A program made the translations under genes and the position numbers. A stretch of DNA of 64,000 nucleotides from Leucocoprinus leucothites (Eukaryota; Basidiomycota; Agaricomycetes; Agaricales; Agaricaceae). The DNA lies in contig JAACJO010000038.1 of the NCBI GenBank assembly GCA_013368445.1, positions 62,001-126,000 on the forward strand, given 5' to 3'. Numbering within the stretch: the first letter of the stretch is position 1; each line of letters opens with the position of its first letter. Positions 3,974 to 59,097 of this stretch are shown piece after piece. The notes under the pieces are model-generated. The model made no database searches. It saw only the letters and a list, made by a program, of their open reading frames with translations, and was not told the DNA's origin.

Positions 3974-4110
3974 CCTGTCAGCCTCCCAGTATCTATCTTG
4001 TAACATGCCAGGGGAGCATCAGGGCAGGTGTGGGAGTAGTAAACAAGATCATGTGACCTTGGTTGACATGTTGAGATGGCTACAACTGTCTTTCTTCCTG
4101 CCACTACATC

Positions 4111-5129: not shown

Positions 5130-5145
5130 GTAGGTAGATAACAGA

Positions 5146-6001: not shown

Positions 6002-6037
<36 letters not shown>

Positions 6038-6213
6038 GTGAATTTATATAGCGGTGCTCAATCGCAGTCTGCTTTCAACTAAATATTACAAACAGACGGT
6101 ACACTACAGCAAGCTGGGGTACATGAAGCAGTCTTCGACCGCTTAAGACAGAGACTATACATGATTAGTCCAGCAACATAGATAAGACTCGAGAGAGACT
6201 ATAGAACGAGGTG

Positions 6214-7020
6214 TCATACACAGAGATCGGACTCAAAGGAAAAGAAGAAAGATGAAATAAGAGAGTATAGTTCACCTTCATTTGGTTCGGCGGGCACAGG
6301 GGCTTGAAGCAGCGGTGGACGTGTGTCATGATTAGCAAAAGCAAATGCGGCCGGGTTCTTTTTCAAGAACTCGACAATGAACTCGTACTGAGGGAAAGCG
6401 CACTGCACCCATTGAGTGCGGAACGGGTAGAGGGGGCAATAGCACAGAATGTGATGTCGTGTTTCCAGGCGATGGCCACAATGACAGGATTTGGGTTCAA
6501 GGGGGAAGAACCTCTCACAATAAGTTCCAATAGGAGCATGGTTGAGGATGGCACGTGTCATACGCGCACATAATGATGGCGATTCATTGGCTAAGGGAAG
6601 CCAGGTGCCCCCTTTGATGTAGGTGGGGATGAGGAACTTGTGATTCTTTTTTGAAAGAAGGAAACCGCTGCCGCGGTACCTCTTCTTCCAGAAAGTGGAC
6701 TCCCAGGACTTCTGGCAGTCGTTGGTGATTTTGCGTCGCAAGAAATCAAGAGTAGCATCTAATCGAGGGGGGGCGTGTATGCGTGTGGAAGTGACGTCTT
6801 TGTGAACTTTAAGATGGGGCTTCCAGCGCCATTTGGAAGGGACGTCCCAGAAGTCGATAGAACGAGAGGGTTTAGCCATGAGCCAGTCGGATAGGAGCCG
6901 GCAGACTTGGATGGAGTGAGATTGGCTCAAATGTATAGATGGATCGACTGCCAGCTTGGCTGCTGGGAGACAGTCGGTGATAAGGATGATGTGATTGCAC
7001 TGAAGAGAGATGGCCTTGGC
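6214..7020 (-). pseudogene. LINE-A ORF2, C-terminal piece (copy A3)
   Basis: This is the end of ORF2, separated from the rest by B1. It includes the last RNase H block (ILITDCLPAAKLAVDPS, the conserved Asp of the third acidic position), a basic region (KSWESTFWKKRYRGSGF) and a C-terminal cysteine/histidine motif, CHCGHRLETRHHILCYCPLY, then FESDLCV and TGA at 6214-6216. When B1 and one TSD copy are removed (2316 bp, a multiple of 3), this piece is in frame with 9337-12483. Confidence 0.93.
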
Positions 7021-9321
7021 CATCCCTCCTTGTCCTCTTACCACCACCATCGAAAGTTGGTGTTTGTTCTGAGGCATTCTTACATCGTCTATCTACAGTA
7101 ATATGGGTAGGTGCAAGTCTAAAGCTACTGCCAACCAGTTTGCCGCGTTCGAATCCGAGTCCGCCGTCTCTGACGATGAGCTCAACATCGCCAAGATGGC
7201 CGAAGACGACCACCTCAACCCCTACAACAACCCACTCAATGTGCGTGGGTTCTTTGGTCCCCCCCAGGCTGACATTTCGTCGCCTGGCCCCTCCCAACCG
7301 ACTGCTGACGTTCCATCGCCATCGGTTGCTCCTCCAGTGGCTGATGTTCTGTCGCCACTCAAACCCTTCACAGCCGGTGGAACCACCTTCTACCCTGTCG
7401 ACGCTCCCCCTGCCATGCCCGAATCAGTGACCTCCTCCAAGGGAAAGAAGAAGGAGCTCACCCTGAAGCGCGCTCTCTCAAGCCTCCATACATTCCTCAA
7501 GTGGTTAGAGGATTGTGCCGAATCCCACTCTTCCATCGCGGAAGAGGATGCTTCTGCGGCCGTCACCTGCCTCGCTAAGGCGGCCTTTGTCATCGTCGAC
7601 GAGCTGGAACTCGACGCCACCCCCCTCTCCTCACACTCGCTCAGCTCTTGCAGGCTGACTGATTTTGGGGATGTAATGTACGACCTCGGGCACAAGTGTG
7701 GGCTGCCCGAGACCGGCCCTAAAGCAACGCGCATCGTCCATGAGGCGACCCATGGATCTGCTGACTCAGCAGGTCCACGTGACATCGACATGGGTTCCCC
7801 AAAGGTGCCCACCTTACCACCCCCGGATCGTCGGCCCGCCCCGGCCCGTCCCTCCCTACCGCCCAAGCCGGCGCCTGCAAAGGCCCGTGCTAGTGGCAAA
7901 GCGCCCATCCAAGCGCCCCCCGCTCCTAAGGTTAGGTCTGATGGCCAAGCCCGGCGAGCACCCATCCCACCCTCAGCGGCTAAGAAGTTGTTTGCTGAGG
8001 TAGCCCGTACCCCGGCCTCTGCGGCAGCGCTTATCAAGCTAGCCCAGTCCCACCCCACCCTCGAGCCCGATCGCGTCGCTGTGATGCATCAGGCCGCCCT
8101 CGCTGATGTGCCTTCTGCGAAGAAGCCCCGCATGACCACGTCGGGCCCCACCCGACACCAACTCTTCCTCAACTTCACTGGCAATTCCAGTGACATCACC
8201 TACCTCCACCACAAGGCCATGCGCCTTCTCAATGATTCCCTCACTCGTGCAAAGAGTTCACTTCACGTTGAGAACATTGCTCGGGCGTACGACACCATAT
8301 CGTTGTACACCAATTCCGTTGCCACTGATGCCGATGCATTGGTGATTGAATCCTCCCTCTCTTCAGCCTTCACTGCCCCGTTTGAGCTGAAGACCAAGCA
8401 CCCCAGGTCCAGGTCTTACCTCAAGATCCTGGATGTCCCTTACTACACGAGTGGCATCCGCACCACTCCGCAACACATCACCGACCCTATGCGTCTGTCT
8501 CCCTTCAAGGAGATATTCGCTAACGTATCCTCCATGTGCATCATGCGCAACTCTGCCAAAGCCGACACTGCCACCGTTTGGGTCAACCTTTGGGATTCTC
8601 AGTCCGGTGCTAATGCTAAGCGCCTGGTCGGCAAATACCTCAACTTCGACGGCGTGCAGTCCATGATCAAGGCCGCGCGCGCTCACCCCAGGACCCCCCA
8701 GTGTCAACGATGCTGGCGTTGGGGCCACACTACCACCACCTGTCGCAACCGTGCGCTCAGGTGCTCACAATGTGGTGGGCCACATCGGTCTGAGAATCAC
8801 TGCACCACCTCCTCCTGCTGTAAGGGATTGCCAAAGGCTAACCCCCCCATTCAGCCCACACCCACTGGGGAACCCTGTCCCCATATCAAGTGTGTCAATT
8901 GCGGCAAGGAACATGCTGCTACTGACCACAAGTGCGTGTTCTGGCGCCACCGGTTTGATCGGGATTGGCTGCAAAGTCATTCTGGTTCTGCTGGTCGGCC
9001 CTGGGCCTAGGGGGAGCTCCCTAGTGTCAACGTATCATCCCCCATCCATCGCCGGATGCCGGATAGGCTCCCACCAACCACAAGGCCTGCCATCAGATGC
9101 AGTGATATCGGTATATGTCTCGCTTCTTTGTATTTGTTACATACCTAGCCCCCTTCTGCTGTCGTCTCGCGTATTGTCTCGGACAGGACTATTATGTATT
9201 CCCAGTTGTTTGCTCTTGCGTAGTCGGTAGTGGTATCGGTTCCCTGTAGTAGATAGTTGGGCGCAGACTGCTATCACGCACTGCGTTATAAATTACTTGA
9301 TTATAAAAAAAAAAAAAAAAA
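7021..9321 (+). mobile_element. LINE-B copy B1: complete ORF1-only retroelement
   Basis: This is a 2301-bp element flanked by a perfect 15-bp TSD, AGAGATGGCCTTGGC (7006-7020 and 9322-9336), and ending in A17. It has an 82-bp leader, one intact ORF (7103-9010), a 3' UTR of about 295 bp and no RT, endonuclease or RNase H. The leader matches the LINE-A leader over its first 33 bases or so, and the 3' end shares the GCAGACTGC/TATAAATT block. It is a non-autonomous half-LINE inserted into A3. Confidence 0.95.
7103..9010 (+). CDS. LINE-B ORF1 protein, intact (635 aa)
   Basis: This is a gag-like nucleic-acid-binding protein with a full reading frame. The start is the ATG at 7103 (MGRCKSKA), which is conserved in B3 and similar in B2 and B4. 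The N-terminal half is rich in Pro, Ala and Ser and contains SADELNI/NVRGFFGPPQAD-type blocks. At about residues 435-525 lies a globular region (RSYLKILDVPYY, then VWVNLWDSQSG), the counterpart of KSFLKIVGVPYW, then WFDIWDSQNG, in LINE-A ORF1. Three zinc knuckles follow: CQRCWRWGHTTTTC (about 533), CSQCGGPHRSENH (about 553) and CVNCGKEHAATDHKC (about 596). The stop TAG is at 9008, with no second ORF after it. Family knowledge suggests RNA binding and chaperone activity; the role in mobilisation is inference. Confidence 0.93.
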   Translation: MGRCKSKATANQFAAFESESAVSDDELNIAKMAEDDHLNPYNNPLNVRGFFGPPQADISSPGPSQPTADVPSPSVAPPVADVLSPLKPFTAGGTTFYPVDAPPAMPESVTSSKGKKKELTLKRALSSLHTFLKWLEDCAESHSSIAEEDASAAVTCLAKAAFVIVDELELDATPLSSHSLSSCRLTDFGDVMYDLGHKCGLPETGPKATRIVHEATHGSADSAGPRDIDMGSPKVPTLPPPDRRPAPARPSLPPKPAPAKARASGKAPIQAPPAPKVRSDGQARRAPIPPSAAKKLFAEVARTPASAAALIKLAQSHPTLEPDRVAVMHQAALADVPSAKKPRMTTSGPTRHQLFLNFTGNSSDITYLHHKAMRLLNDSLTRAKSSLHVENIARAYDTISLYTNSVATDADALVIESSLSSAFTAPFELKTKHPRSRSYLKILDVPYYTSGIRTTPQHITDPMRLSPFKEIFANVSSMCIMRNSAKADTATVWVNLWDSQSGANAKRLVGKYLNFDGVQSMIKAARAHPRTPQCQRCWRWGHTTTTCRNRALRCSQCGGPHRSENHCTTSSCCKGLPKANPPIQPTPTGEPCPHIKCVNCGKEHAATDHKCVFWRHRFDRDWLQSHSGSAGRPWA

Positions 9322-12300
9322 AGAGATGGCCTTGGCGATGCCAATACGGATAGAGTAAAGTTCGGCGTCAGTAGACGACGCTCGACCGCTAGCCTGTTTT
9401 GCATGGGACACTTGCCATCTGCTGCGATATAAATGTGCTGCCAAAACCGCCTGAAGGGAACCTACAAGTGGAACAGAAGCATCAGTAACAACCGAAATAC
9501 AGTTACAATCGGAAGAAGAAGAGGAAAAAGCTGAATCGAGAGACGATACATGTTTATACATTTTGTGTTTATCCGAGCGATTGCAGGGGTGAAAGTGAAT
9601 AGAATCAGGAAAGATGTCCATAAGACGAGATCCAGGCTTTGATTCAGGAGCGAATGGAGAGAAGGATTCAGAAAGATGAGAAAGAGAACTATCTACATCG
9701 ATAAGAGGGCCTTTGACTTTAGCTTTTTTGGCCGGAGTGAGAAGGCAAAGCGATTGGGGATGAGGGGAGGAGTTAAGAGAGAAACTATCAGATAGAAGAG
9801 ATCGTAATGCATGATTAGGGGGTAAAGTAGAGACTCGATACAACGAACGAATGGCTAATTTACGAAGATGAAGGTGAATTGGAATAAGTCCAGCAATGCT
9901 TTCAATGCCGCCTGAAGGGGAGGTATGGAAGGCGCCTGTGATCCAAAGAGCTGCGTGTCTTTGCATAGATGATAAGGACTTTAAAAGCGCCTTGTTGCGA
10001 GTGCCTTCAAAGTACCAGAGTCGGAAACCATATGTGGCCACGGGGACAACGCATGACCTGTAGAGCAGACGTTTTTGTAGAGGGAGGAGGCCTCGGGAGG
10101 AATTGCCTAGCATATACATAGCTTTCACTGTGGATAATGCTTTGGTGGAGTAATACCGGACGTGTTCTTGAAAAGATAGTCGACAGTCAAAATAGAAGCC
10201 CAAGTACTGCCATACACATTTGGGATACAGTAGAGGGCCACCGACATCAGATAAATCAAGGGGGGGATTAGAATCGTTATGTTGTTGGGAGAAGTGAAAG
10301 ACCTCAGATTTATCGTGTTCGACGATAAGCCCGAGATTGGTGCAAATGGAGTTAATGATGGAGTAAGCTGATTTGAGGGAAGAGATAGTGTTAGTATAAT
10401 TCTTTGCCTGAGAGATACAAAGCCCATCATCAACAAATGATAAAAGAGATGAAGGGATAGACTGTAAACGAGAGCGTTGATCAAACATGAACATGAGGGG
10501 TGCTAGATAGAGCGCGGATAGAATGGGTGATAGAGCAGAACCTTGCCCAACGCCTACATCTGCGTCATGGGTGTCGGATAGAAAAGTGTTCCACATGAAT
10601 TGAGTGGATCAACCTATGAGGTAGTGTGAAAAGAAGTTAATGAGTTCTGGGGCGAACCCCTGTCGTCGTAGAATGTTAGCAAGTATTTCATGATTTAGGG
10701 AGGGGAAGAATTGGGCGATATCAAAAGCACAGACGCTAGTAATCATACCTTTGGCCCATCCAGCTCGAATAATATGAGTGAGGAATACTCCTGCATCCTC
10801 AGTGGATCGTTGGATAACTCCGCCCATTTGATTAGGATGGAGAACATCTAGAGACACCGCTTCATACTGCATGCAGCGAGCAATCATCTTCTCGATTAAT
10901 TTACCTAAAGTGTTTAGTAGAACAATGGGACGAAACACTTTTGGTGTATCATAGGCCGGTTTATTCGGCTTGGGAATGATGATAGAGACCGAGTCCTTGA
11001 AGTGACTCAGCCAGTAAGAGAGACATACGCATGTGTTAGCAATGAGTATTATGTTTTTGAGGCATTCATTGTGGGTGACAATGGACTTTAGATGTTTCCA
11101 GGAGACGTGATTGGGCCCGGGCGCTGAAGAGTTAGCACATGAAGAAAGGGATTCGGTGAGTTCAAGGACGGAGAAGTTTGCCCAGGAACGAGGGGGAAGG
11201 GATTTCATTTCATTCAGGATGTTGGGGCTTACCGGTCGGCCGGATGCTGAGTTGTATGATGAATGGAGTGCATTCCATAGATCTGGAAGATCATTGCAAG
11301 GGCGTCCTTGAAAGTGGATTCCCTCAACGGCAGGGAGTTTGCGTTGTTTTACCCATTCCATAAGGTCCCAGGGTCGTTTGGTGGTTGACGCAATTTCATG
11401 GATGTGTGCATCAAAGAAAGAACGTTTAGCAGCTCGAATGGCCGCTCTGAATGCCCGCCAGTCTTTATGGTCCTTCGTTCTTCTGTAGGTAAGAAGAGTC
11501 TCAGAGCAGTGGGGGTTCCACCATTCTTTCGACCGGTTAGTAATCCATACAATCTTAGAGTTCGTGTTCCATGATTCGTTAATGATACGAGAAATGGAGT
11601 CAGAGATGTCATTCAAACGAGAAGTAGAGTGAATGTTTGAGCAGTCAAGGGCTGCTAGATGCTCGGAGACTTGGGAAGTGAAAGCCATCTCTTCATCGCT
11701 ATCTTTCGGTATTACGCGTTTTTTATAATTAATGTAATCTGGACGGATTGGAAGGTCCATAATTAAAGGTGCATGATCCGACGGAAGCCTCGAATTAACA
11801 TCAATAATATGGGGGGTGGAAATGTTAGCACAAAAAATGAGATCGATAACCGAATTGTCATGACTTTCGATGGAAGAGAAATGAGTCGGAGATAATGAGG
11901 TCGGTAAAGACCTTGTAAGATTGAAGCCATCTGCCAACTCCGTTAGAGTTATAGCTGACATAGGGACATAAGTAGCTGAAGAGTCCCATTCTGGAGATCG
12001 GCAATTAAAATCTCCTCCCATATAAATAATATTAGGGATGTCGATGAAGTTCGTTGAAAGGAAATTGATCGCTGATGAGGATGAGTCAGAGTATATGTTA
12101 AGTAGATGAATATAGTTACCCTGGTTGAATAGTCCCAAGATTTGTATGTCGCGGTGGTTGACCCACTCTTGTTGAAGAATAGGTCTCATGCGAAGCAAGC
12201 GTCTGTGAACATACGTCAGAGTACGGGGTCGGGGTTCATTGGGCTTGGTAGAGCGGACCATACACAGCCACTCGGGGTGAATAGGAGCACCAATGACATC

Positions 12301-12483
12301 ATCCCCTTCAGGGTTAGTCGTAGAAGGTGCTTTTCGAATGTGATTCCATGGGGGTTCTTGTAGAAAAATGATTTCGAAGTCCAGCTTCTTGGACTCGAGT
12401 ATAGTATCAACCAGGGTATAAGAGCGTCCCACATTTTGCGAATAGATACGAACAGAAGAAATGGGTTTGTTCTTACCAGACAT
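9322..12483 (-). pseudogene. LINE-A ORF2, endonuclease and RT part (copy A3)
   Basis: This encodes the replication enzyme of LINE-A. From the ATG at 12483 (MSGKNKPISS) come an AP-type endonuclease (IYSQNVGRSY, FLQEPPW, YMGGDFNCRSPEWD, SDHAPLIMD), a linker, the RT (FRPIVLLNTLGKLIEKM, CAFDIAQFFPSLNH, GQGSALSPILSALYL, catalytic FVDDG) and the first RNase H blocks (VVTDASVP, TDAELYSI). The order EN-RT-RNase H is that of I/Tad-group LINEs. The only stop is TGA at 10609-10611 after HYLIG, where sister copies have CGA or CAA. ORF2 starts two bases after the ORF1 stop. Confidence 0.93.
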
Positions 12484-12488
12484 ATTTA
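12481..12488 (-). promoter_or_regulatory. ORF1 stop / ORF2 start junction (TAAATATG)
   Basis: In element orientation the ORF1 stop TAA is followed by AT and then the ORF2 ATG. The same eight bases are kept at 19199-19206, 21504-21511, 38907-38914, 44454-44461 and 56526-56533. The spacing suggests that ORF2 is made by termination-reinitiation on the bicistronic RNA. The mechanism is inference from LINEs with similarly tight junctions. Confidence 0.7.
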
Positions 12489-15231
12489 AACAGCAACTCC
12501 GCCACCGGAGCAATTGGAATTGGCGTGAATGGCACGTGCAGTGTGTGATTCAGCGGCTTTGTTAGAGTGCCAAGTTCGGTTGAACCTGTTCCTCCAGAAT
12601 GGACATTTGGTGTCATTTGCGTGATGATTACCTTTGCAGTTCAGGCATTTAAAGTTATCCAGGTGAGGACATGGGGTGCCCTCAGGAGTGGCATCACGGG
12701 GGGGGATTGGATTTAGGGTTGGCCTTACAGCACCAGGCCATGGATCGATGGTTTTCAACACGATGAGGGCCACCACAAATTTGACAGTGTGCGCCAAGGG
12801 CGCAACACGCATGAGTGGGGTGACCCCAGCGCCAACAGTTTCTGCACTGTGCAACACCCGGGTGCATACTGGTAGCATGGATAGTTCTGATGTGTTGACC
12901 GAAGTTGATAGTACGGTTGACCAACGTCTTGGCCTTAGTACCATTCTGGGAGTCCCATATGTCGAACCACATGACAGCTGTGTCCGATTTTGGGGAGGCT
13001 TTCATAATGCGAGGGCGGGCGGCAAGGATAACATTTTCGAACAAAGTAGATTGTCTGAGGGCTTGTTCAACGAATGCAGGGGAAAGGGGGTTGGAGGAAT
13101 TGGCTACCCAATAAGGGACGCCGACAATTTTAAGGAACAATTTAGATTGTGGGAGACGAGGCTCAACGGGGATGGTGTCTCCTAGTTGCCAGGCTTTTTT
13201 AAGCCAGGACTTGATGATTTCAAGGTTGGCAGGAGAAGCGACGCCTGAAGTAGCGATTGATATGCCGTTATACGATTCACGAACTGATTCGACTCGGAGT
13301 TTGGACTGGGCGGCAATGAGACCGCGATTGCAAAATTCTGCTGCCTTGTTAAAGTCCTTAATCCGGTCAGCGATGATGTTTCCCTCGAAAGGGATAAGGA
13401 CTTGACAATGGGTAGGTCCGTGTGTGGTCATTTTAGGTTTAGCACGTGGGGCGCTTGCGGTTGAAGGTTCGGGTGCTTGAGGTTGGGCGCCTCCAAAGCC
13501 TGCCTTGTACATAGCAAGGACTTTATCGTATGATAATTCAGGGAAGGCGAGTATCATTTCTCGCATTTTAACCCCATCAATATTGGGAGAGGAGTTGGAA
13601 GAGGAAGTCGTCGGCTGGACACCCGGTCGGGCGGCATCAGCGAACGACACATTCTTCTTGTTGAAGTGTTCCGTAAGGGGTTTGGTGGATGCCTTACGGT
13701 CGGGAGGGGGAATAGGAGGCGGCATGTCAGAGGCGCTCTTGGGGTTAGGTTTTGATGGCTGAGCCTGGCCATCAAAAGAGGGACGCCCAACTGAGCACTC
13801 GAAGTTTCCATTCCCGTTCATTGGGGTCACGTGATTGGAAGGAGGAGGGGGGGCCCGGGAGACGCAGATAGGACTGGAGGGCTTGGAAGACGTAACGTCA
13901 TTCCTTGCCTTCAGGGAGCCTGACATGGACGAAACGTCACGTGCCTTACCAGAAGACTTAACATCATCCTGGGGGAGGGAGGGGGTGCCCTCGCTGGGAG
14001 GGGCTTGATCGATATTCATTTGGTCATCCTTGATGTGACCTGTAGGATTAGTTTGCCCAACGACAATGCTGGGCGGGAATAGGGGGGTAGGGATGGTGGA
14101 CGGAGAAGGTTTGCGTACCTTTTTTCCCTTCCCTTTGCCCTTAGGAGGGGGGGAAGAGTCTGTCATGGGGATGTCGGAGGGAGGACCGTAGTAATGTCTT
14201 AGCGCATCAATGATGGTGAGACCGCTTTCACCATTAATGGGAAGACGATCCCAGCCTGTTTTGAACATAGTGGAGAGTAAACAATATATTGGTTCCCCCA
14301 TCTGGGGAACCCTTGGGTCTTTTCTGCCAGGCTGTAATCCTAGCGCAGCACGGTGCTTAAAGAAAGTTGTAGCATATTTAAGCGCCTCCAGCGCTTTGAA
14401 AGTAGCTTCACCGACAACAACAGTCTCTTCGGTGGCAGTGTTCAATGGATCCTTAAGATCCGGTAGATGTGGCTGTGCAGGCCTAGGCTCCTGCGGCTGT
14501 GCAGTGATGTTACCAGTGACATCATGTGTGACGTCATTAGTATTAGATGAGCCGGCAAAGAAGGTAGCCGGAGTGCCGGTTGGCACAGCATTTGCTGACT
14601 CAGCGGATCCATGGATTGCATGAGGCAGCCTTGAGGTGGGTGGGGGTCCAAAGAGCCGAATGGCAGGTTCCCCGTTCTTGATAATCCCATCCTCTTGGTC
14701 GCTCCATGCGTCCCCGCGAGAGTGCAAGTTCAGAGGGTCAGGTTTGTTGAGCTCACCAAGAAATCCCTCGCCGAATGGATGGAAGGGAATGGGTGACTTG
14801 AAACCGTTGTATGCGCTCATTGACGTGGTTCTTGAGATGGCTTTGGGTGTAGACTCCAATCCTCTACGGACATCTCGAGCATGGGCCCGTTTGGAACGCA
14901 ATGATGGAGGAGGAGGAGTTCTGAGGGAGGAGTGTGAGGCTGCACGGGAAAGTGCAGCATGTACATTTATGGGAGAGGAAGGGGTTGAAGATCCAGACGA
15001 ATCGGAATCACTCTCACCACTTTCTTCGATGTCAGATCCTGCTCTGGATGAGGCGGCCGACTTGGCATCATTGCAAGCAGAATGTTTAGTTGATTTGATA
15101 GAAAGTGCGGGCGAAATAGAGCGGTCGCGCTTGTAGATAGAGACACGTGTTTCAGTGTTGACGAGGTTGATGGGGTCCGAAGATGGTGGAGGTGTACCCT
15201 TAAGGTCCACCCAATGTAATGGTGCAGTCAT
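12486..15231 (-). pseudogene. LINE-A ORF1 (copy A3), single homopolymer frameshift
   Basis: This is the near-intact gag-like ORF1, about 915 codons from the ATG at 15231 (MTAPLHWVDLKGTPP) to the TAA at 12486. Order: Ser/Glu-rich N-terminus, HPFGEGFLGELNKPD block, DVT repeat, Pro-rich middle with PPPIPPPDRKASTKPL, conserved MREMILAFPELSYDKVLAMYKAGFG, globular KLFLKIVGVPYW to WFDIWDSQNGTKAK, then three CCHC-type knuckles. The frame breaks once, at a run of eight G (12698-12705) where the A5 copy has seven bases, shifting the last 70 codons or so. This could be a real mutation or a base-calling error. Confidence 0.92.
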
Positions 15232-15756
15232 ATCGATAGAATTCGTAGTCAGATTGTATGTAGACACCGTCAAAGAAATCGATGATGGTGGTAAGAGGGA
15301 AAGGAGGATGTGGTTGACACTCTTCTTGTCCTATATCCCTTCTGCACTCAATGGGTACAATGCACTTTCCCTCAGTATGAGTTCCTTGTCAAGTTCTTGA
15401 AAAAGAACCCAGCTGCTTTTGCCTTTACCAATCATGATATGCGTCCACCACTGCCTCAGCTTCTGTGCCTGCCAAATCAAATGAAGGTGAACTATACTCT
15501 TTCATTTTATCTTTTATCTTTTCCTTTGAGTCCGATCTCTGTGTATGACACCTTATTCAATAGTCTCTTTCGAGTCTTTCTTATGTTGCTGGACTAATTG
15601 TGTATAGTCTCTGTCTTAAGCGGTCTTTGACCGCTTTGTGTACCCTAGCTTGCTGTAGCGTACCGTCTGCCTGTAATATTTAGTTGAAAGCGGACTGCAA
15701 TCGAGCACTGCTATATAAATTCATTGATTTAAAAAATAAATAAATAAATAAAAAAA

Positions 15757-30229: not shown

Positions 30230-31939
30230 TTGCCTGCACTGTCTATGAATTCGAGATGAGCGGGCATGGGAGTACACACATTTCCATGGGTAAACAGTGG
30301 GCCAGCCATGGCTGGACCACCTTTCACTCCTTCATGCAGGGCTTTACCTGGTTCAATGAGCTGGAAGCCTCCCCTAAAGACACATGCGTCATCCATGAGG
30401 TGACCCATGGATCCGCTGACAAAGCGGAACCATGTGACATCAACATGGGCTCCCCCAAGGCACCCAAGCAAACGCCCAAGGCCCCATGGCCTGCCCCAGC
30501 CCATCCCCCTGTACCGCCCAAGCAAGCACCCCCTAAGACATGTGCTAGTGGCCCCCCTCAAGCACCCACAAAGGCACCCATCCCCACTTCTGCTCTGGTG
30601 CCTCGTCAGCGCTCGTTTGCAGAAGCCACCCATTCTGGCACTTCGGCGCCGCCTGTGTCACTCATCAAGCTGGCACAGGCAAACCCCTCCCTTGACCCTG
30701 ATCGTGTTGCCGTGATGCATCAGGCCATCACTGCCACCACCAGCTCTGCCAAGAAGCTGCGCATGACTACTGCTGAGCCCACCTGCCACCAACTGTTCCT
30801 TGATTTCACTGGGGATGCCAGTGAGAACACCTATCTCCACCACAAGGCCATGCACCTCCTCAATGACGCCCTCTCACATGCAAAGTCTTCCTTGCACATT
30901 GAGAATATCACCAAGGCGTACAGCACTATCGCACTGTATACCTCTGCCGTACCCTCAGACTCCGACATCACCATCATTGAGTCTGCTATCCCCTCCGTCT
31001 TCACTGCCCCATTCGAGCTGAAGATGCGCCGCCCCAGGTCAAGGTCTTATCTGAAGATCCTCAATGTCCCCTTCCACGTGAATGGTGTCTGTATTACGCC
31101 AGTTCAGATCACTGATCGCATGTGATTGTCTCCATTCAAGGACACCTTTGCAGACATTTCATCCATGCACATTATGCACAACTCCCCCAAGGCTGACACC
31201 ACAACCGTTTGGTTTGACCTATGGGACTCTCAGTCAGGAGCTGGTGCCAAGAAGCTCCTCAACAAGTACCTCAACTTCAACAGTATGTAGGCTGTCATCA
31301 AGCCTGCCTGTGCCCACCCCGGTGTCCCTCAGTGCCAGCACTGCTGGTGCTTTGGTCACTCTACCCCCACCTGCCACAACCGTGCACTCAGGTGTTCCCA
31401 GTGTGGTGGCCCTCACCATAGTGAGAACCATCACTCCACATCGTCATGCTGTAAGGGGAGTCTGAAGGCAAACCCCCCCATCCTGCCCACACCCACCAGG
31501 GAGCCCTGTCCCCACATCTCATGTATCAACTGCAAGGGTGACCATACAGCTGATGATCGAAAGTGCCCATTCTGGCACCACCAGTTCAACTGTGATTGGC
31601 TCAGCTGTCACAAGGAGGACAATAGGAGGCCCCAGTAGTAGGTCGTGTACCTGCTTCAACACATCTTCCAACCCTGTCGGTACATTGCTAGGGCCACACG
31701 TGCATGTAAGCTTACTGTTAGAGGTCTGCAAGTTGGACTTTAGTTTCATCTCTTTGTTACTATGCCACATCTCTTTGCCATTGAGTAGTGTACTATATTC
31801 AGACAGGACTTTATCTATTCTCATCTTTGTGGTATCTGGTTTAGGTAGCGTTACTTAGGCCCTATATTATGTTGGCGAGCGCGGACTGCGACTGGGCACC
31901 ACGTAATAAATCATTGATTAAAAAAAAAAAAAAAAAAAA
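30230..31939 (+). mobile_element. LINE-C copy C1 (5'-truncated ORF1-only retroelement)
   Basis: This is a relative of LINE-B with its own ORF1 and a 3' UTR of about 280 bp that ends in A20 (31920-31939). The terminus reads GCGGACTGCGACTGGGCACC, then TAATAAATCATTGATT, which is alignable to LINE-A and B ends. The 5' part is missing at the A4 junction. No ORF2 follows ORF1. No TSD is evident between 16558 and 31940. Confidence 0.85.
30231..31638 (+). pseudogene. LINE-C ORF1, broken (copy C1)
   Basis: This is gag-like ORF1 of a third lineage. The visible parts are HEVTHGSADKAEPCDINMGSPKAP (30395-30465), the Pro-rich middle, the globular RSYLKILNVPFHVNG to WFDLWDSQSGAGAK, and the knuckles CQHCWCFGHSTPTC, CSQCGGPHHSENH and CINCKGDHTADDRKC. 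It ends at TAG 31636. TGA at 31123 and TAG at 31288 interrupt the frame. The length would be similar to LINE-B ORF1 if its 5' part were present. Confidence 0.88.
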
Positions 31940-33793: not shown

Positions 33794-36104
33794 CATCCCT
33801 CCTTGACCTCTTACCACCACCATCGAAAGTTGGTGTGTTATAAGACATCTAGTTTACATTGTTATTCTACCTATTCTACATGGGTAAACAAAGATCCAAG
33901 TCTAACAAGCCTCCCTGCCAAACAACCGAGTCCGCTGAAGCCTCTGCTGATGAGCTCAACATTGCCGAGATGTCCAAGGATGAACATCTCGACCCCTATG
34001 ATGACCCCCGCAATGTCCGTGGGTTCTTTGGTCCTCCCCAGGCTGACGTTTTGTTGCCCAGTCCCTCCTCCCTGCCTGCTGCTGATGTTCCATCGCAGCC
34101 AGTAGCGCCACTCATGGCTGACGTTCCGTCGCCATCTCCAAAGCCCTTCACTGCTGGTGGACAAATGTTCTACCCCATGAAGAACCTACTCCCCCCAGCA
34201 CCGCCGTCCGCTGTCTCCTCCAGGTCAACTGAGGAGTCTGTTGAGACTCGGGCTCTTGCTGGGCTCCACTACTTCACCTGCTTCGTCAGGTCAGTCCCCC
34301 AAGGCCCCCTACCCGAGGCCACTATCACTGTACTCACTCCGACCCTTGTTGGGCTTGTTGCAGAAGTCTTCAACTGTGGCCAAGGCGACACGGCCCTCAC
34401 CAGCAAGCAAATGTGTGCCCAGGGATGGGACACATTCATGAGTTTCATCCAGGATTGTGCCACCGGAGTTCTGGAGGCTGGCCCTAATTGTATGCGCATT
34501 GTCCATGAGGCGACCCATGGATCTGCTGACAAAGCAGATCCACGTGACATTGACATGGGCTCCCCCAAGGTGCCCAAGCAAATGCCCAAGGCACCGTGGC
34601 CCACCGTGGCCCACCCCTCCCTACCGCCCAAGCCGGTACCTGCGAAGGTGCGTGCTAGTGGCAAAGCGCCCATTCAAGCGCCCCCTGCTCCTAAGGCTAG
34701 GTCTGGTGGCCAAGCCCGGCGAGCGCCCATCCCACCCTCGGCAGCTAATAAGTTGTTCACTGAGGTAGCCCGTACCCTGGCGTCTGCAGCAGCGCTTATC
34801 AAGCTAGCCCAGTCCCACCCCACCCTCGAGCCCGATCGTGTTGCTGCGATGCATCAGGCTGCCCTTGCTGATGCACCTTCTGCGAAGAAGCCCCGCATGA
34901 CCACGTCGGGCCCCACCCGATGCCAACTCTTCCTCGATTTCACTGGCAGTGCCGGTGACATCACTTATCTCCACCACAAGGCCATGCACCTTCTCAACGA
35001 CTCCCTCACTCACACAAAGAGTTCACTTCATGTTGAGAACATCGCTCGGGCGTATGACACCATCTCGTTGTACACCAATTCCATTGCCACTGATGCCAAT
35101 GCATCAGTGATCAAATCCTCCCTCTCTTCGGCCTTCACCGCCCCGTTTGAGCTGAAGACCAAGTGCCCCAGGTCCAGGTCTTACCTTAAGATCCTGGACA
35201 TCCCTTATTACACGAGTGGCATCTGCACCACTCCGCAACACGTCACCGACCGTATGCATCTGTCTCCCTTCAAGGAGACATTCACTAATGTATCCTCCAT
35301 GCGCATCATGCACAACTCCGCCAAAGCCAACACTGCCACCATTTGGGTTGACCTTTGGAATTCTCAGTCCAGCGCTAATGCTAAGCGCCTGGTCGGCAAA
35401 TACCTCAACTTCGACATTGTCCAGTCTATGATCAAGGCTGCATGCACTCACCCTGGGACCCCCCAGTGTCAACGATGCTGGCGGTGGGGCCACACTACCA
35501 CCACCTGTTGCAACCATGCGCTCAGGTGCTCACAATGTGGTGGGCCACATCGGTCCGAGAATCACTGCACCACCTCCTCCTGCTGTAAGGGATTGCCAAA
35601 GGCAAACCCCCCCATCCAGCCCACACCCGCCGGGGAACCCTGTCCCCATATCAAGTGTGTCAATTGCGGCAAGGAACATGCTGCTACTGACCACAAGTGC
35701 GCATTCTGGCACCGCTGGTTTGATCGGGATTGGCTGCAAAGTCATTCTGGTTCTGCTGGTCGGCCCCGGGCCTAGGGGGAGCTCCCTAGTGTCAATGCAT
35801 CATCCCCCATCCATTGCCAGTTGCTAGATGGGCTCCCACCAACCACAAGGCCTGCCATCAGATGCAGTGATATTGGTATATGTTTCATTCCTTGTATTTT
35901 GTTACATGCCTAGCCCCCTTCTGCTGTCATTTCGTGTATTGTCTCAGACAGGACTATTATATATTCCCGGTTGTTTACTCCTGTGTAGTTGGTAGCAGTA
36001 TCGGTTCCCTGTAGTAGATAGTTGGGCATGGACTGCTATTGTGCACCATGTTATAAATTTGGACCCCTTTGGGGTCCACTGACCTTAAAAAAAAAAAAAA
36101 AAAA
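33794..36104 (+). mobile_element. LINE-B copy B2: complete ORF1-only retroelement
   Basis: This is the second complete B element, about 2.3 kb, with TSD GAGAGTATAGGTG (33778-33790 and 36105-36117) and A18 (36087-36104). Three extra bases (CTC) lie between the left TSD and the usual CATCCCTCC 5' end. The 3' end differs from B1 by a perfect GGACCCC/GGGGTCC hairpin (36061-36077) next to the tail. Confidence 0.95.
33880..35775 (+). CDS. LINE-B ORF1 protein, intact (631 aa)
   Basis: This is the full gag-like frame from the ATG at 33880 (MGKQRSKSNK) to the TAG at 35773. Same order as B1: ESAEASADELNI and NVRGFFGPPQAD at the N-terminus, a Pro/Ala-rich middle, globular RSYLKILDIPYY to WVDLWNSQSS, and three knuckles (CQRCWRWGHTTTTC, CSQCGGPHRSENH, CVNCGKEHAATDHKC). 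A central segment (about residues 115-205) differs strongly from B1 while both ends are close, so B1 and B2 belong to different subfamilies or recombined. That two copies at different positions stay open suggests recent activity. Confidence 0.93.
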   Translation: MGKQRSKSNKPPCQTTESAEASADELNIAEMSKDEHLDPYDDPRNVRGFFGPPQADVLLPSPSSLPAADVPSQPVAPLMADVPSPSPKPFTAGGQMFYPMKNLLPPAPPSAVSSRSTEESVETRALAGLHYFTCFVRSVPQGPLPEATITVLTPTLVGLVAEVFNCGQGDTALTSKQMCAQGWDTFMSFIQDCATGVLEAGPNCMRIVHEATHGSADKADPRDIDMGSPKVPKQMPKAPWPTVAHPSLPPKPVPAKVRASGKAPIQAPPAPKARSGGQARRAPIPPSAANKLFTEVARTLASAAALIKLAQSHPTLEPDRVAAMHQAALADAPSAKKPRMTTSGPTRCQLFLDFTGSAGDITYLHHKAMHLLNDSLTHTKSSLHVENIARAYDTISLYTNSIATDANASVIKSSLSSAFTAPFELKTKCPRSRSYLKILDIPYYTSGICTTPQHVTDRMHLSPFKETFTNVSSMRIMHNSAKANTATIWVDLWNSQSSANAKRLVGKYLNFDIVQSMIKAACTHPGTPQCQRCWRWGHTTTTCCNHALRCSQCGGPHRSENHCTTSSCCKGLPKANPPIQPTPAGEPCPHIKCVNCGKEHAATDHKCAFWHRWFDRDWLQSHSGSAGRPRA

Positions 36105-41744: not shown

Positions 41745-42768
41745 TTTGCACCTTCTAACACTCCTCTCCATCAACTACTCCTTCCCTCCAAGACATGGCC
41801 ACCAGGTTCATCACCCTGGCTGAAGTCTTCTCTCAGCCTAAGTGGGGCAACCTGCCAGCTGACCCTGAGGATCCCAACAACCAGAGAACAGTCGCTGAGG
41901 CACTCTGCACTCTCTTTGCCAACCCCCAAGGCAACATAGACACTGATATGAGGGACATGACACCTGGTCCTGGGCAGGCCCTTGTGCCCACCCAGCCTGC
42001 ACCCCCTCCCCCCTCCTCCTCCAGACCTGCAGCACCCTGTATGCCCAGGGCCACTGACCCGGCCCCTCCCCTGAGGGCTAGGACAGCTGGACAGGGATCC
42101 TCCACTGTGCCTCCCAAGCCAGCCAATAAGGGCAAACACCCTGCTAGGTCTGCTAATGTCTCCATGATGGAGGCTACTCTTAACCCCAAGTTGACCCCTG
42201 CCAAGCACTCTTTCGCTCAGGTGGTGGTAACCTCTTCTTCCTGTGCAGTGCTGAAGGCCCAGCAGGGCTCTGGGGACTTGTCCCTGGTTCTGCTTGCTTG
42301 TGCCTTCCCTCACCTCTCCCCTGACAAGCTCCTTCACCTTCACAAGCAAGGATCATTACCCAGTGGCAGGGCAGACAACTTCCCCAGGAAGTGTCCTTGC
42401 ACCACTACCTCAGGGCCATCCCATAAGGTGGTCCTCCTTACAACTGACAATTCCTCATTGCAGTTGAACCCTGATGAGGCAATGTGCCAAGTCAACCATT
42501 ACCTCTCCAAGAAGAAGAACCATCTTTGCCTTCAGAGCAGTATCATCACCTATCATGGATGGTCTTTCCAGACCAATGTTGTTCCCAATCCTGCTCAGCT
42601 GGAACTCATTTGCAAGGACTTCACTCAGTGTGTCTGGCCTACAGTCAACTGCCAGGTTAACATGGCCATCCCCCAGTCACAATCTTTCCTCAAGATTGTC
42701 AACATCCTGCACTTCACCTCTAGTGGTACTACAACAGGTGCTAACATCATGGAAGAGGCAATGCATCA
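41745..42768 (+). pseudogene. LINE-D ORF1, N-terminal part (copy D1)
   Basis: This is a gag-like ORF from the ATG at 41795 (MATRFITLAEVFSQPKWG). It is Pro/Ala-rich (APPPPSSSRPAAPC), followed by SLVLLACAFPHLSPDKLLHLHKQG, which parallels the LAFPELSYDKVLAMYKAG block of LINE-A. A globular QSQSFLKIVNILHFTSSG region follows. The frame is open until B3 splits it at 42768. The 5' end of its element is not seen: the 16 bp at 41745-41760 end in CACCTTCTAACA, identical to the copia LTR end. The rest of the ORF is at 51708-51998. Confidence 0.85.
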
Positions 42769-42848
42769 TCCCTCCTTGTCCTCTTACCACCACCATTGAA
42801 AGTTGGTGTTTGTTCTAAGGCATTCTTACATTGTCTATCTATATTACT

Positions 42849-44183
42849 ATGGGTAGGTGCAAGTCTAAAGCTACTGCCAATCAGTTTGCCATGTTTGAAT
42901 CTGAGTCTGCCATGTCCGATGATAAGCTCAACATCACCAAGATGGCCGAAGATGACCACCTCGACCCCTACGACAACCCACTCAATGTGCCTGGGTTCTT
43001 TGGCCCCCCCCAGGCTGACGTCTCATTGCCTGGCCCCACTCAACTGACAGCTGATGTTCCATCACCATTGGTTGCTCCTCCAGTGGCTGATGTATTGTCG
43101 CCACTCAAACCCTTCACAGCCGGTGGAACCACCTTCTACCCTGTTGATGCTCCCCCTGTCATGCCTGCATCAGTGACCTCCTCCAAGGGAAAGAAGAAGG
43201 AGCTCACCCTAAAGTGCACCCTCAACAACCTCATATCCTTCCTTAAGTGGTTGGATACCATCAAAGACCCCACCAATATTGTGGTTCAAGATGCGCAGTC
43301 CATGGTTACCTGTTTAGCCAAGGCCTCGCATGCCATAGCCAGTGAGCTAAAGATGAGCAGCATGCTAATCACCCCTAACTCTCTCAACGCCGCTGGCTGG
43401 GAGACATTTGGAGATTTTCTGGGGGACTTCGGTCATAGATTCTCGACTGAGGCCTCCCCTAAAGCGACGTGCGTCGTCCATGAGGCGACCCATGGATCCG
43501 CTGAGTCAGCGGGTCCACGTGACATCAACATGGGTTCCCCCAAGGTGCCCACTTTACCACCCCCAGATCGTTGGCCTGCCCTGGCCCATCCCTCCCTACT
43601 GCCCAAGCCAGCACCTGCAAAGGCCTGCGCTAGTGGCAAAGTGCCCATTCAAGTGCCCCCCGCTCCTAAGGTTAGGTCTGATGGCCAAGCCTGGCAAGCG
43701 CCCATCCCACCCTCAGTGGCTAAGAAGTCGTTCACTGAGGTCACCTGCACCCCAGCATCTGCGGCAGCACTTATCAAGCTTGCCCAGTCCCACCCCACCC
43801 TTGAGCCTGACTGCATTGCCATGATGCATCAGGCTGCCCTCACTGATGTGCCTTCTGCAAAGAAGCCCCACATGACCACATTGGGCCCCACCCAATACCA
43901 ACTCTTCCTTGATTTCACTGGCAATGCTAGTGATATCACCTACCTCCACCATAAGGCCATACACCTTCTTAATGACTTCCTCACTCACATGAAGAGTTTG
44001 CTTCGCATTGAGAACATCACCTGAGCATACGACACCATCTCATTGTACACCAACACTGTCGCCACTGATGCAGATGCATTAGTGATCAAATCCTCCCTCT
44101 CTTCAGCCTTCACAGCCCTGTTTGAGCTGAAGACCAAATGTCCCAGGTCCAGGTCTTACCTTAAGATCCTGGATGTCCCTTAC
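42849..44183 (+). pseudogene. LINE-B ORF1, N-terminal two thirds (copy B3)
   Basis: It runs from the ATG at 42849 (MGRCKSKATANQ) through the SDDKLNI, NVPGFFGPPQAD and Pro-rich parts to RSYLKILDVPY, where B4 is inserted. There is a TGA at 44022-44024 in ENIT-stop-AYDTIS (Ala-Arg-Ala in B1). The middle segment (LNNLISFLKWLDTIKDPTN) differs from both B1 and B2. Confidence 0.9.
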
Positions 44184-44399
44184 TTTTTTTTTTTTTTTAA
44201 ATTAGTGGACCCTGAAGGGGTCCAAATTTATAATGCAGTGTGCAATAGCAGTCCATGCCCGACTATCTACTACAGGGAACTGATACCACTACTGACTATG
44301 CAAGAGTAAACAACCAGGAATATATAAAAGTCCTGTCCAAGACAATATGCGAAATGACAGCAGAAGAGGGCTAGGCATGTGACGAAATACAAAGAGATG

Positions 44400-47300: not shown

Positions 47301-48580
47301 ATCTTTCCCGATTCTATTCATTTTCACCCTTGTAATCATTTGGACAAGCATGAAATGTATAAACATGTATTGTCTCTGAATTCTGTTTTCTCTTCCTCTT
47401 CTTCTGATCTTAATTGTATATCAGTTGTTACTGACACTTCTGTTCCCCTTGTAGGTTCCCTTCAGGCAGTTTTGGCAGCACACTTATATCGCAGCAGACA
47501 TCAAGTGTCCCATGCAAAACAGGCTAGCAGCCAGGCATCCTCCACAGACGCTGAACTGTATTCCATCCACATTGGTATCGCCAAGGCCATCTCCCTCCAG
47601 TGTGATTGCATCATTCTCATCACCGACTGTCTCACAGCAGCCAAGCTGGCAGTTGATCCTTCTATCCACTCAAGCCAGTCACACTCTATCCAAGTCTGTC
47701 GACTTCTATCCAACTGGCTTGTGGCCAAACCATCTTGCTCCATTGACTTCTGGGACGTCCCTTCCAAGTGGTGCTGGAAGCCCCATCTCAAAGTCCACAA
47801 TGACATCACTACCACATGCATACATGCCTCTCCTCATACAGGTGCCACTCTTGACTTCTTGTGACACAAAGCCACCAATGACTGCCAGAAATCCTGGGAG
47901 TCCACATTCTGGAAGAAGAAGTACTGCGGCAATGGTTTCCTTCTCTCAAAAAAGAACTGCAAGTTCCTTATCCCTACTTATGTCAAAGGGGGCACCTGGA
48001 TTCCCCTAGCCAATGAGTCCATGTCATTATGCACACACATGACTCGTGCTATTCTCAATCACGCTCCTATTGGAGCTTATCATGAGAGGTTCTTCCCCCT
48101 TGAGCCCAAATCCTGTCGCTATGGCCATCGCCTGGAAACACGACATCATATCCTGTGTTACTGTCCCCTTTATCCCATTCGCACTCAATGGGTACAATGC
48201 GCCTTCCCTCAGTACGAGTTCCTCATCAAGTTCTTGAAAAAGAACCCGGCTGCTTTTGCCTTCACCAATCATGACACACATCCACCACCGCCTCAAGTTC
48301 CTGTGCCCGCCAAACCAAATGAAGGTGAACTATATTCTTTCATTTCATCCCTTCTCTTTTCCTTTGAGTCCGATCTCTGTGTATGACACCTCGTTCAATA
48401 GTCTCTCTTGAGTCTCTTCTATTTTGCTGGACTAATCATGTATAGTCTTTGTCTTAAGCAGTCTTCGACCACTTCGTGTACCCCAGCTTGCTGTAGTGTA
48501 CCCTCTGTTTGTAATATTTAGTTGAAAGTGGACTGCGATCGAGCACTGCTATATAAATTCATTGATTTAAAAAAATAAAA
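44400..48580 (+). mobile_element. LINE-A copy A10 (5'-truncated just before ORF2)
   Basis: This is a 4.18-kb plus-strand copy starting in the last 18 codons of ORF1, holding all of ORF2 and the 3' UTR, and ending in an A-rich tail (48569-48580). TSD AATACAAAGAGATG at 44386-44399 and 48581-48594. Confidence 0.95.
44458..48386 (+). pseudogene. LINE-A ORF2, full length but heavily mutated (copy A10)
   Basis: This shows the whole ORF2 plan in about 1310 codons: endonuclease (YSQNVGCSY near residue 15, FLQEPPW 40, MGGNFN 155), RT (FCPIVLLNTLSKLIEKM 515, CAFDIAQLFPSLNH 585, GQGSALLPILSALYL 646, catalytic motif 683), RNase H (VVTDTSVP about 990, TDAELYSI about 1030) and the Cys/His tail (about 1220). 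Ten in-frame stops: TAG 44728, TAA 46531, and TGA at 44740, 45484, 45625, 45637, 46174, 46918, 47104 and 47862. All eight TGA are at Arg positions of sister copies. The catalytic FVDD reads FVND, and a deletion near 47190 shifts the frame. Confidence 0.95.
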
Positions 48581-48706
48581 AATACAAAGAGATGAAACAT
48601 AAACCAATATCACTGCATCTGGAATGGCAGGCCTTGAGGTTGGTAGGAGCCCATCCAGCAACTGGCGATGGATGGGGGATGATGCATTGGCACTAGGGAG
48701 CTCCCC

Positions 48707-50931: not shown

Positions 50932-51015
50932 AGTAACATAGATAGATGATGTAAGAATGCCTCAGAACAAACACCAACTTTCAATGGTGGTGGTAAGAGG
51001 ACAAGGAAGGGATGT

Positions 51016-57914: not shown

Positions 57915-59097
57915 TTTTTATTTATTTAAAAAAAATCAATGATTTATTACACGGTGCCCAGTTGCAGTCTGCGCTTGCCAACATAATACAGGGCCTAAGT
58001 ACTGCTACCTAAACCAAATACTACAAAGACGAGAATAGATAAAGTCCTGTCTGAATATAGTACACTACTTGATGGCAAAGAGACGTGGCATAGTAACAAA
58101 GAGATGAAACTAAAGTCCAACTTACAGACCTCTAACAGTAAGCTTACATGGGCGTGTAGCCCTAGTGACATACCAACGGGGTTGGAAGATGTGTTGAAGC
58201 AGGTACATGACCTACTACTGGGGCCTCCTATTGTCCTCCTTGTGATGGCTAAGCCAATCATGGTCGAACCAGTGGCACCAGAACAGGCACTTTTGATCAT
58301 CAGCTGCATGGTCGCCCTTGCAATTGATATATGAGATATGGGGACAGGGCTCCCCAGCAGATGTGGGCAGGATAGGGGGGTTTGCCTTTGGACTCCCCTT
58401 ACAGCATGACAATGTGGAGTGATGGTTCTCACTACAGTAAGGACCACTACACTGGGAACACCTGAGTGCACAGTTGTGGCAGGTGGGAGTAGAGTGACCA
58501 AAGTGCCAGCAGTGCTGGCACTGAGGGACACTGGGGTGGGCATGGGTGGGCTTGATGACAGCCTGCATACTGTTGAAGTCAAGGTACTTGTTGAGGAGCT
58601 TCTTGGTACCAGCTCCTGACTGAGAGTCCCATAGGTTGAACCAAATGGTTGCAGTGTTGGCCTTGGGGGAGTTATGTATAATGTGCATGGATGAAACGTT
58701 GGCGAAAGTGTTCTTGAATGGAGACAGTTGCATGCAATCAGTGATCTGAACTGGCGTAATACAGACACCATTCATGTGGAAGGGGACATCAAGGATCTTA
58801 AGATAAGACCTTGACCTGGGGCAGCATGTCTTCAGCTCGAACAGGGCAGTGAAGACAGAGGGGATAGCAGACTTGATGACAGTGATGTCGGAGTCTGAGG
58901 GTATGGCGGAGGTATACAGCACAATAGTGCTGTATGCCTTGGTGATATTCTCAACATACAAGGAAGACTTTGCATGCAAGAGGGCATCATTGAGAAGGTG
59001 CATAGCCTTGTGGTGGAGATAGGTGATCTCACTGGCATCCCCAGTGAAATCAAGGAACAGTTGGCGGCAGGTGGGCCCAGCGGTGGTCATGCACGGG
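57915..59097 (-). mobile_element. LINE-C copy C2 (5'-truncated)
   Basis: This is a minus-strand LINE-C with a T-rich end (57915-57927), the 3' UTR of C1 type and the C-terminal half of ORF1. No ORF2 lies between ORF1 and the tail, which supports C being an ORF1-only element. Its right edge joins the gypsy LTR through the shared octamer AGAAGCCC. Confidence 0.88.
58215..59090 (-). pseudogene. LINE-C ORF1, C-terminal half, open frame (copy C2)
   Basis: About 291 codons are open from MTTAGPTCRQLFLDFTGDAS to HHKEDNRRPQ-stop. It has the globular region (RSYLKILDVPFHMNG to WFNLWDSQSGAGTK) and the knuckles CQHCWHFGHSTPTC, CSQCSGPYCSENH and CKGDHAADDQKC. The N-terminal half is missing at the gypsy junction. 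Confidence 0.9.

What the first reader, a model, noticed from the sequence alone, without database searches (positions are those of the whole stretch)
7021..9321. Intact ORF1-only retroelements (LINE-B): a fungal counterpart of half-LINEs
B1 (7021-9321) and B2 (33794-36104) are complete: 5' end, one open ORF1 of 635/631 aa with three zinc knuckles, a 3' UTR of about 300 bp, poly-A and 13-15 bp TSDs. B3 and B4 have the same plan. None of the four carries endonuclease or RT, while no LINE-A copy in the window has an undamaged ORF2. Keeping ORF1 open without ORF2 implies selection on, or recent amplification of, an ORF1-only parasite, as known for mammalian HAL1. I know of no named fungal example.
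Basis: partly seen in the sequence, partly recalled or inferred. Interest (0 to 1): 0.85.

Follow-up and report, generated by a model that had tools for sequence, protein, structure and literature searches.

The report
ORF1-only LINE parasite in a mushroom
A mushroom genome carries many copies of a short jumping gene that kept only the RNA-binding protein of its parent family and probably borrows the copying enzyme of a related full-length element whose RNA ends it shares; elements built this way are known in mammals and flies and probably already in fungi.

Summary
B1 and B2 are full-length, ~2.3 kb, poly-A-tailed, TSD-flanked elements encoding only a 631-635 aa ORF1. Of 71 best-scoring ORF1 matches (1294 candidates), 25 are full-length and stop-free. 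All 40 scored B 3'UTRs (258 candidates) follow B ORF1; no ORF2-bearing B was found. A ~70%-identical lineage (B') is also ORF1-only. Deep comparisons show purifying selection even on transversions; changes among closer copies look near-neutral. A full-length relative, LINE-A, has copies with an open ORF2 elsewhere in the genome and shares 5' and 3' ends with B and B', including a 3' stem-loop with paired changes between families. Best reading: a long-lived ORF1-encoding LINE parasite moved in trans by LINE-A, working like HAL1 and HeT-A. The claim that no fungal example is named is doubtful: "HaTad-type" elements are reported as exclusive to the one large, putatively centromeric repeat cluster of each Agaricus bisporus chromosome, and the A/B matches listed here also form one block per large contig. 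A feature I did not see in the papers looked at: the centre of ORF1 exists in four versions (21-44% identical) exchanged among copies whose flanks are much more alike.

The parts
7006..7020 (+). 5' target-site duplication of B1 (AGAGATGGCCTTGGC); second copy at 9322-9336
7021..9322 (+). B1, complete ORF1-only element with poly-A
7021..7053 (+). 5'-terminal motif (CATCCCTCCTT...CTCTTACCACCACCATC) shared with B2, B' and, slightly altered, LINE-A
7103..9010 (+). B1 ORF1, 635 aa, open
7454..7720 (+). Central ORF1 module (codons 118-206), type I of four exchanged types; helical in a low-confidence model
8132..9007 (+). Conserved C-terminal part of ORF1 (RRM-like strand/helix order in a low-confidence model, then three Cys/His knuckles), homologous to LINE-A ORF1
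9011..9304 (+). B1 3'UTR
9262..9285 (+). 3'-terminal stem-loop at the same place in A, B and B'
33794..36104 (+). B2, complete ORF1-only element; ORF1 33880-35775 (631 aa), central module type III
42767..44184 (+). B fragment (B1 positions 1-1424), central module type II
48576..51014 (-). Broken B copy or copies (B1 positions 1-2119 with gaps)
30250..31938 (+). B' element (5' part missing), ORF1-only, own 3'UTR and poly-A
57915..59103 (-). Second B' copy in the window, 5' part missing
9323..15311 (-). LINE-A copy A1, 5' part (ORF1, EN, RT; damaged), interrupted by B1
6002..7020 (-). LINE-A copy A1, 3' part (ORF2 C-terminus, 3'UTR with the shared stem-loop)

Best explanation
B (with its sister B') is a non-autonomous LINE lineage that encodes only an ORF1 RNA-binding protein. 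Inferred cycle: B RNA is translated; ORF1p binds the RNA it came from and forms an RNP; the EN-RT protein of LINE-A recognises the shared 3' stem-loop and poly-A and inserts B by target-primed reverse transcription, largely into LINE blocks that look like centromeres. Shown: anatomy, TSDs and poly-A; absence of ORF2 at every scored B 3'UTR; LINE-A copies with an open ORF2 in the genome; shared 5' and 3' ends with paired changes; purifying selection between deep B lineages. Inferred: that A is the helper, that selection on ORF1 acts through cis preference, and that the blocks are centromeres.
For: ORF1-only: 40 of 40 scored B 3'UTR places (of 258 candidates) have B ORF1 directly upstream (one shows only 17 nt of ORF1 end before another insertion); of 62 B ORF1 matches that reach the C-terminus 50 are followed by a B-type 3'UTR, 12 were not read, none is known to be followed by ORF2; B': 36 of 40 main matches run from ORF1 at least 210 nt into the B' 3'UTR. 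Open frames: 25 of 71 ORF1 matches full-length and stop-free (69 of 1294 candidates scored). Helper: 4 of 71 scored A matches have a 1329-aa ORF2 frame without stops; one of these read in full has a 1317-aa ORF2 from its ATG and a 14-bp TSD. Shared ends: 5'; 3': 201 of 225 outer-stem cells paired, shuffle mean 186.1, 0 of 2000 shuffles as high, slid versions 32-116; outermost pair A-U in all 6 A rows, C-G, U-G or U-A in 28 of 32 B rows, C-G or U-A in 6 of 7 B' rows. Selection: single-pair transversions at 4-fold vs 0-fold sites 15/213 vs 6/790 (L001-L067, p=8e-7) and 34/132 vs 76/771 (L001-L062, p=2e-6); group NG86 dN/dS 0.16 and 0.22.
Against: No expression or transposition data. Searches score only the best 40-71 of 258-1294 candidates, so a rare ORF2-bearing B could be missed. 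The A copy read in full has an ORF1 frame (829 aa) that stops before the last knuckle, so a fully intact A was not shown. Among 35 alignable B copies private changes look neutral (omega: transitions 0.84, transversions 1.38); shared changes give 0.54 for transitions but 11 N: 2 S for transversions. Type I vs III transversion ratio is 0.57, L004-L074 p=0.11, and the two B' copies show 0 four-fold and 4 zero-fold transversions. Alifold finds the shared stem in the 6 A ends and in all 45 ends, but prefers a shifted helix for the 32 B ends alone and a weak one (-2.57) for the 7 B' ends; both B' ends folded singly fold otherwise; the shuffles do not allow for relatedness.
Confidence: 0.72

Rival explanations
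1. B is repeatedly produced by a rare autonomous B-type LINE (ORF1+ORF2) that was not scored or assembled; selection on ORF1 acts on that parent and the ORF1-only copies are its deletion derivatives.
For: Searches are capped (40 of 258 and of 518 candidates), 12 of 62 ORF1 ends were not read, and many LINE blocks lie on small contigs and may be incomplete.
Against: All 40 scored 3'UTRs have ORF1 upstream; junction queries gave 40 of 41 and 40 of 40 matches spanning ORF1 end into 3'UTR (the best-scoring matches favour spanning ones); B and B', ~70% identical, are both ORF1-only with open copies, so two hidden parents would be needed.
Confidence: 0.15
2. B is a dead deletion derivative amplified recently; its ORF1 is open only because copies are young.
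For: Private and shared transversions among B copies are near neutral and most variation is transitions.
Against: Transversion constraint between deep lineages and stop-free ORF1 in copies 65-75% identical to B1 in protein.
Confidence: 0.07
3. B ORF1 has taken a host or chromosome role, for example at centromeres, and is kept for that reason rather than for its own spread.
For: The listed matches fall in one block per large contig.
Against: High copy number, many broken copies, poly-A and TSDs: the signature of a selfish element; LINE-A has the same distribution.
Confidence: 0.04

Closest known systems
HaTad-type elements of Agaricus bisporus large repeat clusters (Sonnenberg et al. 2020, PMC7473861)
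   Same: Same family Agaricaceae; non-LTR; four families found only in, and in all, the single 110-280 kb repeat cluster per chromosome taken as the centromere. Here the listed A and B matches also form one block per large contig.
   Different: The parts I read do not state HaTad ORF content, and no sequence could be compared here. That HaTad means half-Tad (ORF1-only) is inferred from the name and from the entry 'Tad1-24_BG (HaTad1-3, 1-5)' in a table of PMC3747384.
HAL1 (half-L1) of mammals
   Same: Encodes only ORF1p; non-autonomous; thought likely to use the machinery of L1 (PMC5753468 and PMC4161310, passages).
   Different: An L1 derivative; here the relative is a fungal LINE with EN, RT and an RNase H-like match, and B ORF1 is only 31-39% identical to its ORF1. 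No comparison with L1 ORF1 was run.
HeT-A of Drosophila
   Same: Gag-encoding non-LTR element lacking pol; TART Pol proposed as supplier; confined to a special chromosome region (PMC4467039, passages).
   Different: Telomeric; B lies in blocks that on most large contigs are internal, and B copies have TSDs.
MoTeR2 of Magnaporthe oryzae
   Same: Fungal RT-less element sharing 5' and 3' ends with an RT-encoding partner (PMC7367193, passages).
   Different: MoTeR2 keeps 860 bp and 77 bp of shared ends around unrelated sequence and lies in telomeres; B keeps a diverged ORF1 under selection and only short shared ends.

Membership tests
ORF1-only non-autonomous LINE (HAL1-like organisation) | Encodes ORF1 but no EN/RT | tested here: met
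ORF1-only non-autonomous LINE (HAL1-like organisation) | Mobilised as RNA: poly-A tails and TSDs | tested here: met
   TSD of 9 bp or more in 19 of 28 fetched copies in which the script found an A-run
ORF1-only non-autonomous LINE (HAL1-like organisation) | Shares ends with an autonomous partner | tested here: met
   note that L1-driven elements are thought to rely on poly-A (PMC3747384, passages)
ORF1-only non-autonomous LINE (HAL1-like organisation) | Transposes with the partner's RT | not testable with these tools
   needs an assay
HAL1 proper | ORF1 derived from L1 | not tested
   no comparison with L1 ORF1 was run; the nearest ORF1 seen is that of fungal LINE-A
HaTad-type (Agaricus bisporus) | Confined to one large repeat cluster per chromosome | tested here: inconclusive
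   On 11 contigs of 1 Mb or more every place listed lies in one block per contig (~1.3 of 27.7 Mb, tallied by eye; C3 has one place), but the lists hold only best-scoring candidates, so exclusivity is not shown; methylation and centromere identity not testable
HaTad-type (Agaricus bisporus) | Sequence relationship to the named families | not testable with these tools
   Repbase and the A. bisporus genome are not held
Tad clade (for LINE-A, the presumed helper) | Zinc-knuckle ORF1; ORF2 with EN, RT and RNase H (features recalled) | tested here: inconclusive
   EN and RT above Pfam cut-offs; RNase H-like RVT_3 at E=5e-4, 20.4 bits against a cut-off of 21.6; no clade tree made
HeT-A-like telomeric element | Located at chromosome ends | tested here: not met
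   Blocks on C1, C2, C4, C5, C7, C9, C10 are internal; those on C6, C8 and C13 lie within ~200 kb of a contig end; the TTAGGG arrays listed for C2, C4 and C6 are at the far ends from, or away from, the blocks

The most novel reading that the evidence does not exclude
B and B' form an old, self-sustaining ORF1-only LINE lineage of putative mushroom centromeres that lives on the RT of LINE-A, and its ORF1 evolves by swapping a ~90-residue helical cassette among four versions (21-44% identical) while, in the clearest pairs, both flanks stay 80-96% identical, possibly to escape host control or to set oligomerisation specificity.
Probability: 0.43. Interest if true: 0.7.

Novelty: new member of a known kind. 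Interest (0 to 1): 0.5.

Why it matters
If right, it is a case in which an ORF1-only LINE lineage kept its protein under selection across deep divergence without an RT of its own, beside a candidate helper with the same RNA ends. That makes two questions testable: what ORF1 does in cis, and how LINE RTs choose templates. The exchanged central cassette offers a natural set of domain swaps, and the one-block-per-contig distribution ties the parasite to putative centromeres of mushrooms.

Tried and rejected
Telomeric (HeT-A-like) placement: rejected, since most blocks on large contigs are internal. B as a recent internal deletion of LINE-A: rejected, ORF1 identity 31-39%. P0001 as an independent-species homologue: rejected; its contig length 2,355,037 equals C7 of this genome, and by eye it joins an EN-like fragment to a B ORF1 fragment. 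A protein search with B' ORF1 found nothing at E 0.001. Naive dN/dS between close copies: not relied on, because variation is mostly transitions. That singleton/shared test leaves out sites with more than two alleles, sites whose minor allele is in exactly two copies, and columns absent from B1; four copies (L018, L029, L069, L073) were dropped before it. The dN/dS and transversion counts use only copies chosen for an open frame. AlphaFold of ORF1 from 12 sequences: mean pLDDT 46, only hints; no fold search was made. In the 3'-end set 47 of 52 sources were used (45 distinct); A_15k, L008, L018, L026 and L029 did not match the pattern.

Full report
Identity of the genome. The window is C38:62001-126000 of a 47.0 Mb, 110-contig assembly.

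Observation. B1 (7021-9322) and B2 (33794-36104) are as described: short 5'UTR, one open ORF1, ~300 nt 3'UTR, poly-A, TSDs of about 14-15 bp. B1 interrupts a LINE-A copy. Pfam recognises no domain above cut-off in ORF1 but finds EN and RT in LINE-A ORF2. The other B pieces in the window are broken.

Copies in the genome. DNA search with B1 gave 98 matches with 40 of 518 candidates scored; 25 besides B1 are full length. With the ORF1 protein, 25 of 71 matches are full-length and stop-free (69 of 1294 candidates scored, so the share is that of the best matches). Of 30 fetched copies the script found an A-run in 28, and 19 of those have a TSD of 9 bp or more, most often 15 bp (10 of 19). A second lineage, B' (window 30250-31938 and 57915-59103), has 40 main matches (561 candidates), 36 of which run from ORF1 at least 210 nt into the B' 3'UTR; of six B' stretches fetched, one (L062) has a 643-aa ORF1 between a CATCCCTCCTT start and an A-rich tail, the others shorter frames.

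What follows ORF1. All 40 scored B 3'UTR places (258 candidates) have B ORF1 directly before them: 18 by coordinates, 16 by reading up to 171 nt upstream, 5 by contiguous matches, and one (L078) shows 17 nt of ORF1 end next to what looks like another inserted element. Of 62 ORF1 matches reaching the C-terminus, 50 are followed by a B-type 3'UTR: 18, 24 in stretches held (in L069 cut off by an A insertion; in L073 diverged, with the B-like terminal stem-loop), 8 by matches. Twelve were not read. No B ORF1 or B 3'UTR was seen next to an ORF2 of its own.

The likely helper. LINE-A is ~7 kb with an ORF1 and a 1317-1329 aa ORF2. Of 71 scored A matches (528 candidates) 4 have a 1329-aa frame without stops, all on C28. 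One of them was read in full (L075): ORF2 1317 aa from its ATG, a 14-bp TSD inside a B 3'UTR, but an ORF1 frame of 829 aa that stops before the last knuckle, so a fully intact A was not shown. ORF2 relatives include Agaricales proteins of Cyclocybe, Candolleomyces, Psilocybe, Agaricus bisporus and L. birnbaumii. A ORF1 and B ORF1 align best in the C-terminal half, at 31-39% identity overall.

Shared ends. The first ~30 nt are alike in A, B and B'. The 3' ends share, without gaps, a 24-nt stem-loop followed in A and B by TATAAATT and in B' by TAATAAATC. Over 45 distinct ends the 5-bp outer stem is paired in 201 of 225 cells (shuffle mean 186.1, none of 2000 as high; slid versions 32-116); the outer pair is A-U in all 6 A ends, C-G, U-G or U-A in 28 of 32 B ends and C-G or U-A in 6 of 7 B' ends; the inner 3-bp stem pairs in 45, 44 and 40 of 45. 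Against it: the shuffles do not allow for relatedness, alifold of the 32 B ends alone prefers a shifted helix, that of the 7 B' ends is weak, and two B' ends folded singly fold otherwise. Two B ends (L020, L021) end in the very CATTGATT tail of LINE-A; 30 of 34 B ends carry a G+C-rich hairpin there instead. LINE RTs of the stringent type recognise 3' structures (PMC3747384, passages seen). This is why I take A as the helper; it is an inference.

Selection. NG86 dN/dS from residue 218 to the end is 0.25 within type I copies, 0.16 against C28 copies and 0.22 against B'. Because most changes are transitions, I repeated it with transversions at 4-fold and 0-fold sites: 0.068 vs 0.009 (type I vs C28) and 0.267 vs 0.099 (type I vs B'). 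Of 11 single pairs tested, 9 give p from 9e-5 to 5e-7, L001-L004 6e-4, and L004-L074 0.11. Against this, the type I vs III ratio is only 0.57 and comparisons with A are saturated, and 35 alignable B copies show near-neutral private changes, 0.54 for shared transitions and 11 N: 2 S for shared transversions. Reading: copies decay neutrally after insertion, while the lineages that keep producing copies have a constrained ORF1. The ORF1-only plan on both sides of the B/B' split suggests that this happened without an own ORF2.

Exchanged centre of ORF1. Copies 90-96% identical to B1 up to codon ~120 drop to 40-60% over codons ~120-200 and return to 83-98% (L017, L021); two C28 copies 80-100% alike elsewhere are 28-58% alike there. 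Four versions of the centre (21-44% aa identity among the reference modules; types I and II, at 44%, are recognisably related) are carried by 23, 12, 6 and 6 of 47 copies. On a tree of the rest of ORF1 the versions need 9 changes where 3 is the minimum; one-clade trees are rejected for types II (p 0.00016), III (0.009) and I (0.022) (L073, of type I, is a long branch, and supports within the shallow clade are modest). The module is modelled as helices at low confidence. Template switching or gene conversion would produce this; the cause is unknown.

Place in the genome. On the 11 contigs of 1 Mb or more that have matches, all places listed fall in one block per contig (up to ~233 kb; about 1.3 of 27.7 Mb, tallied by eye; C3 has a single place; the lists hold best-scoring candidates only). 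Blocks on C6, C8 and C13 lie near a contig end, the others are internal. In Agaricus bisporus each chromosome has one 110-280 kb heavily methylated repeat cluster, likely the centromere, and four HaTad-type families are exclusive to these clusters (PMC7473861; abstract, passages and section 8 read). I infer that these are the same kind of block.

Known or new. ORF1-only LINEs are a known kind: HAL1 (PMC5753468, passages) and HeT-A (PMC4467039, passages). In fungi, MoTeR2 lacks RT (PMC7367193, passages), and HaTad is a named type; its name, and its listing beside a Tad1 LINE of Blumeria in a table of SINE/LINE tail pairs (PMC3747384, passage), suggest half-Tad elements. In the listings and passages of ten paper searches I saw no description of HaTad ORF content and none of exchanged ORF1 modules in such elements, but no search was aimed at the latter. 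I therefore file B as a new member of a known kind, with the cassette exchange as its most unusual feature. Confidence figures were lowered slightly on re-checking, because the A copy read has an incomplete ORF1 and the B-only and B' structure predictions are weaker than first written.

Noticed in passing
window 41795-42799 (+): Open frame of 334 aa that reads like an ORF1 of another LINE family; no Pfam hit.
   Followed up: no
window 2781-5895 and 33101-33778: Frames that read like Ty1/copia gag-integrase and RT-RNase H fragments (by eye); not tested with a family search.
   Followed up: no
G000:C28 (471 kb): All four scored LINE-A matches with a stop-free 1329-aa ORF2 frame and a supported B subgroup lie on this one contig.
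   Followed up: partly
A ORF2 matches: Premature stops are mostly TGA (by eye), as expected from C-to-T decay of CGA codons.
   Followed up: no
G000:C2:3107124-3107237: An internal TTAGGG array ~40 kb from the contig end; the exact four-repeat pattern occurs 180 times forward and 0 times reverse.
   Followed up: no
B 3' ends: 30 of 34 B ends carry a G+C-rich hairpin where LINE-A and two B copies (L020, L021) have CATTGATT.
   Followed up: partly
P0001 (D9756_004290): Public gene model that joins an EN-like fragment to a B ORF1 fragment; likely an annotation of nested insertions.
   Followed up: partly
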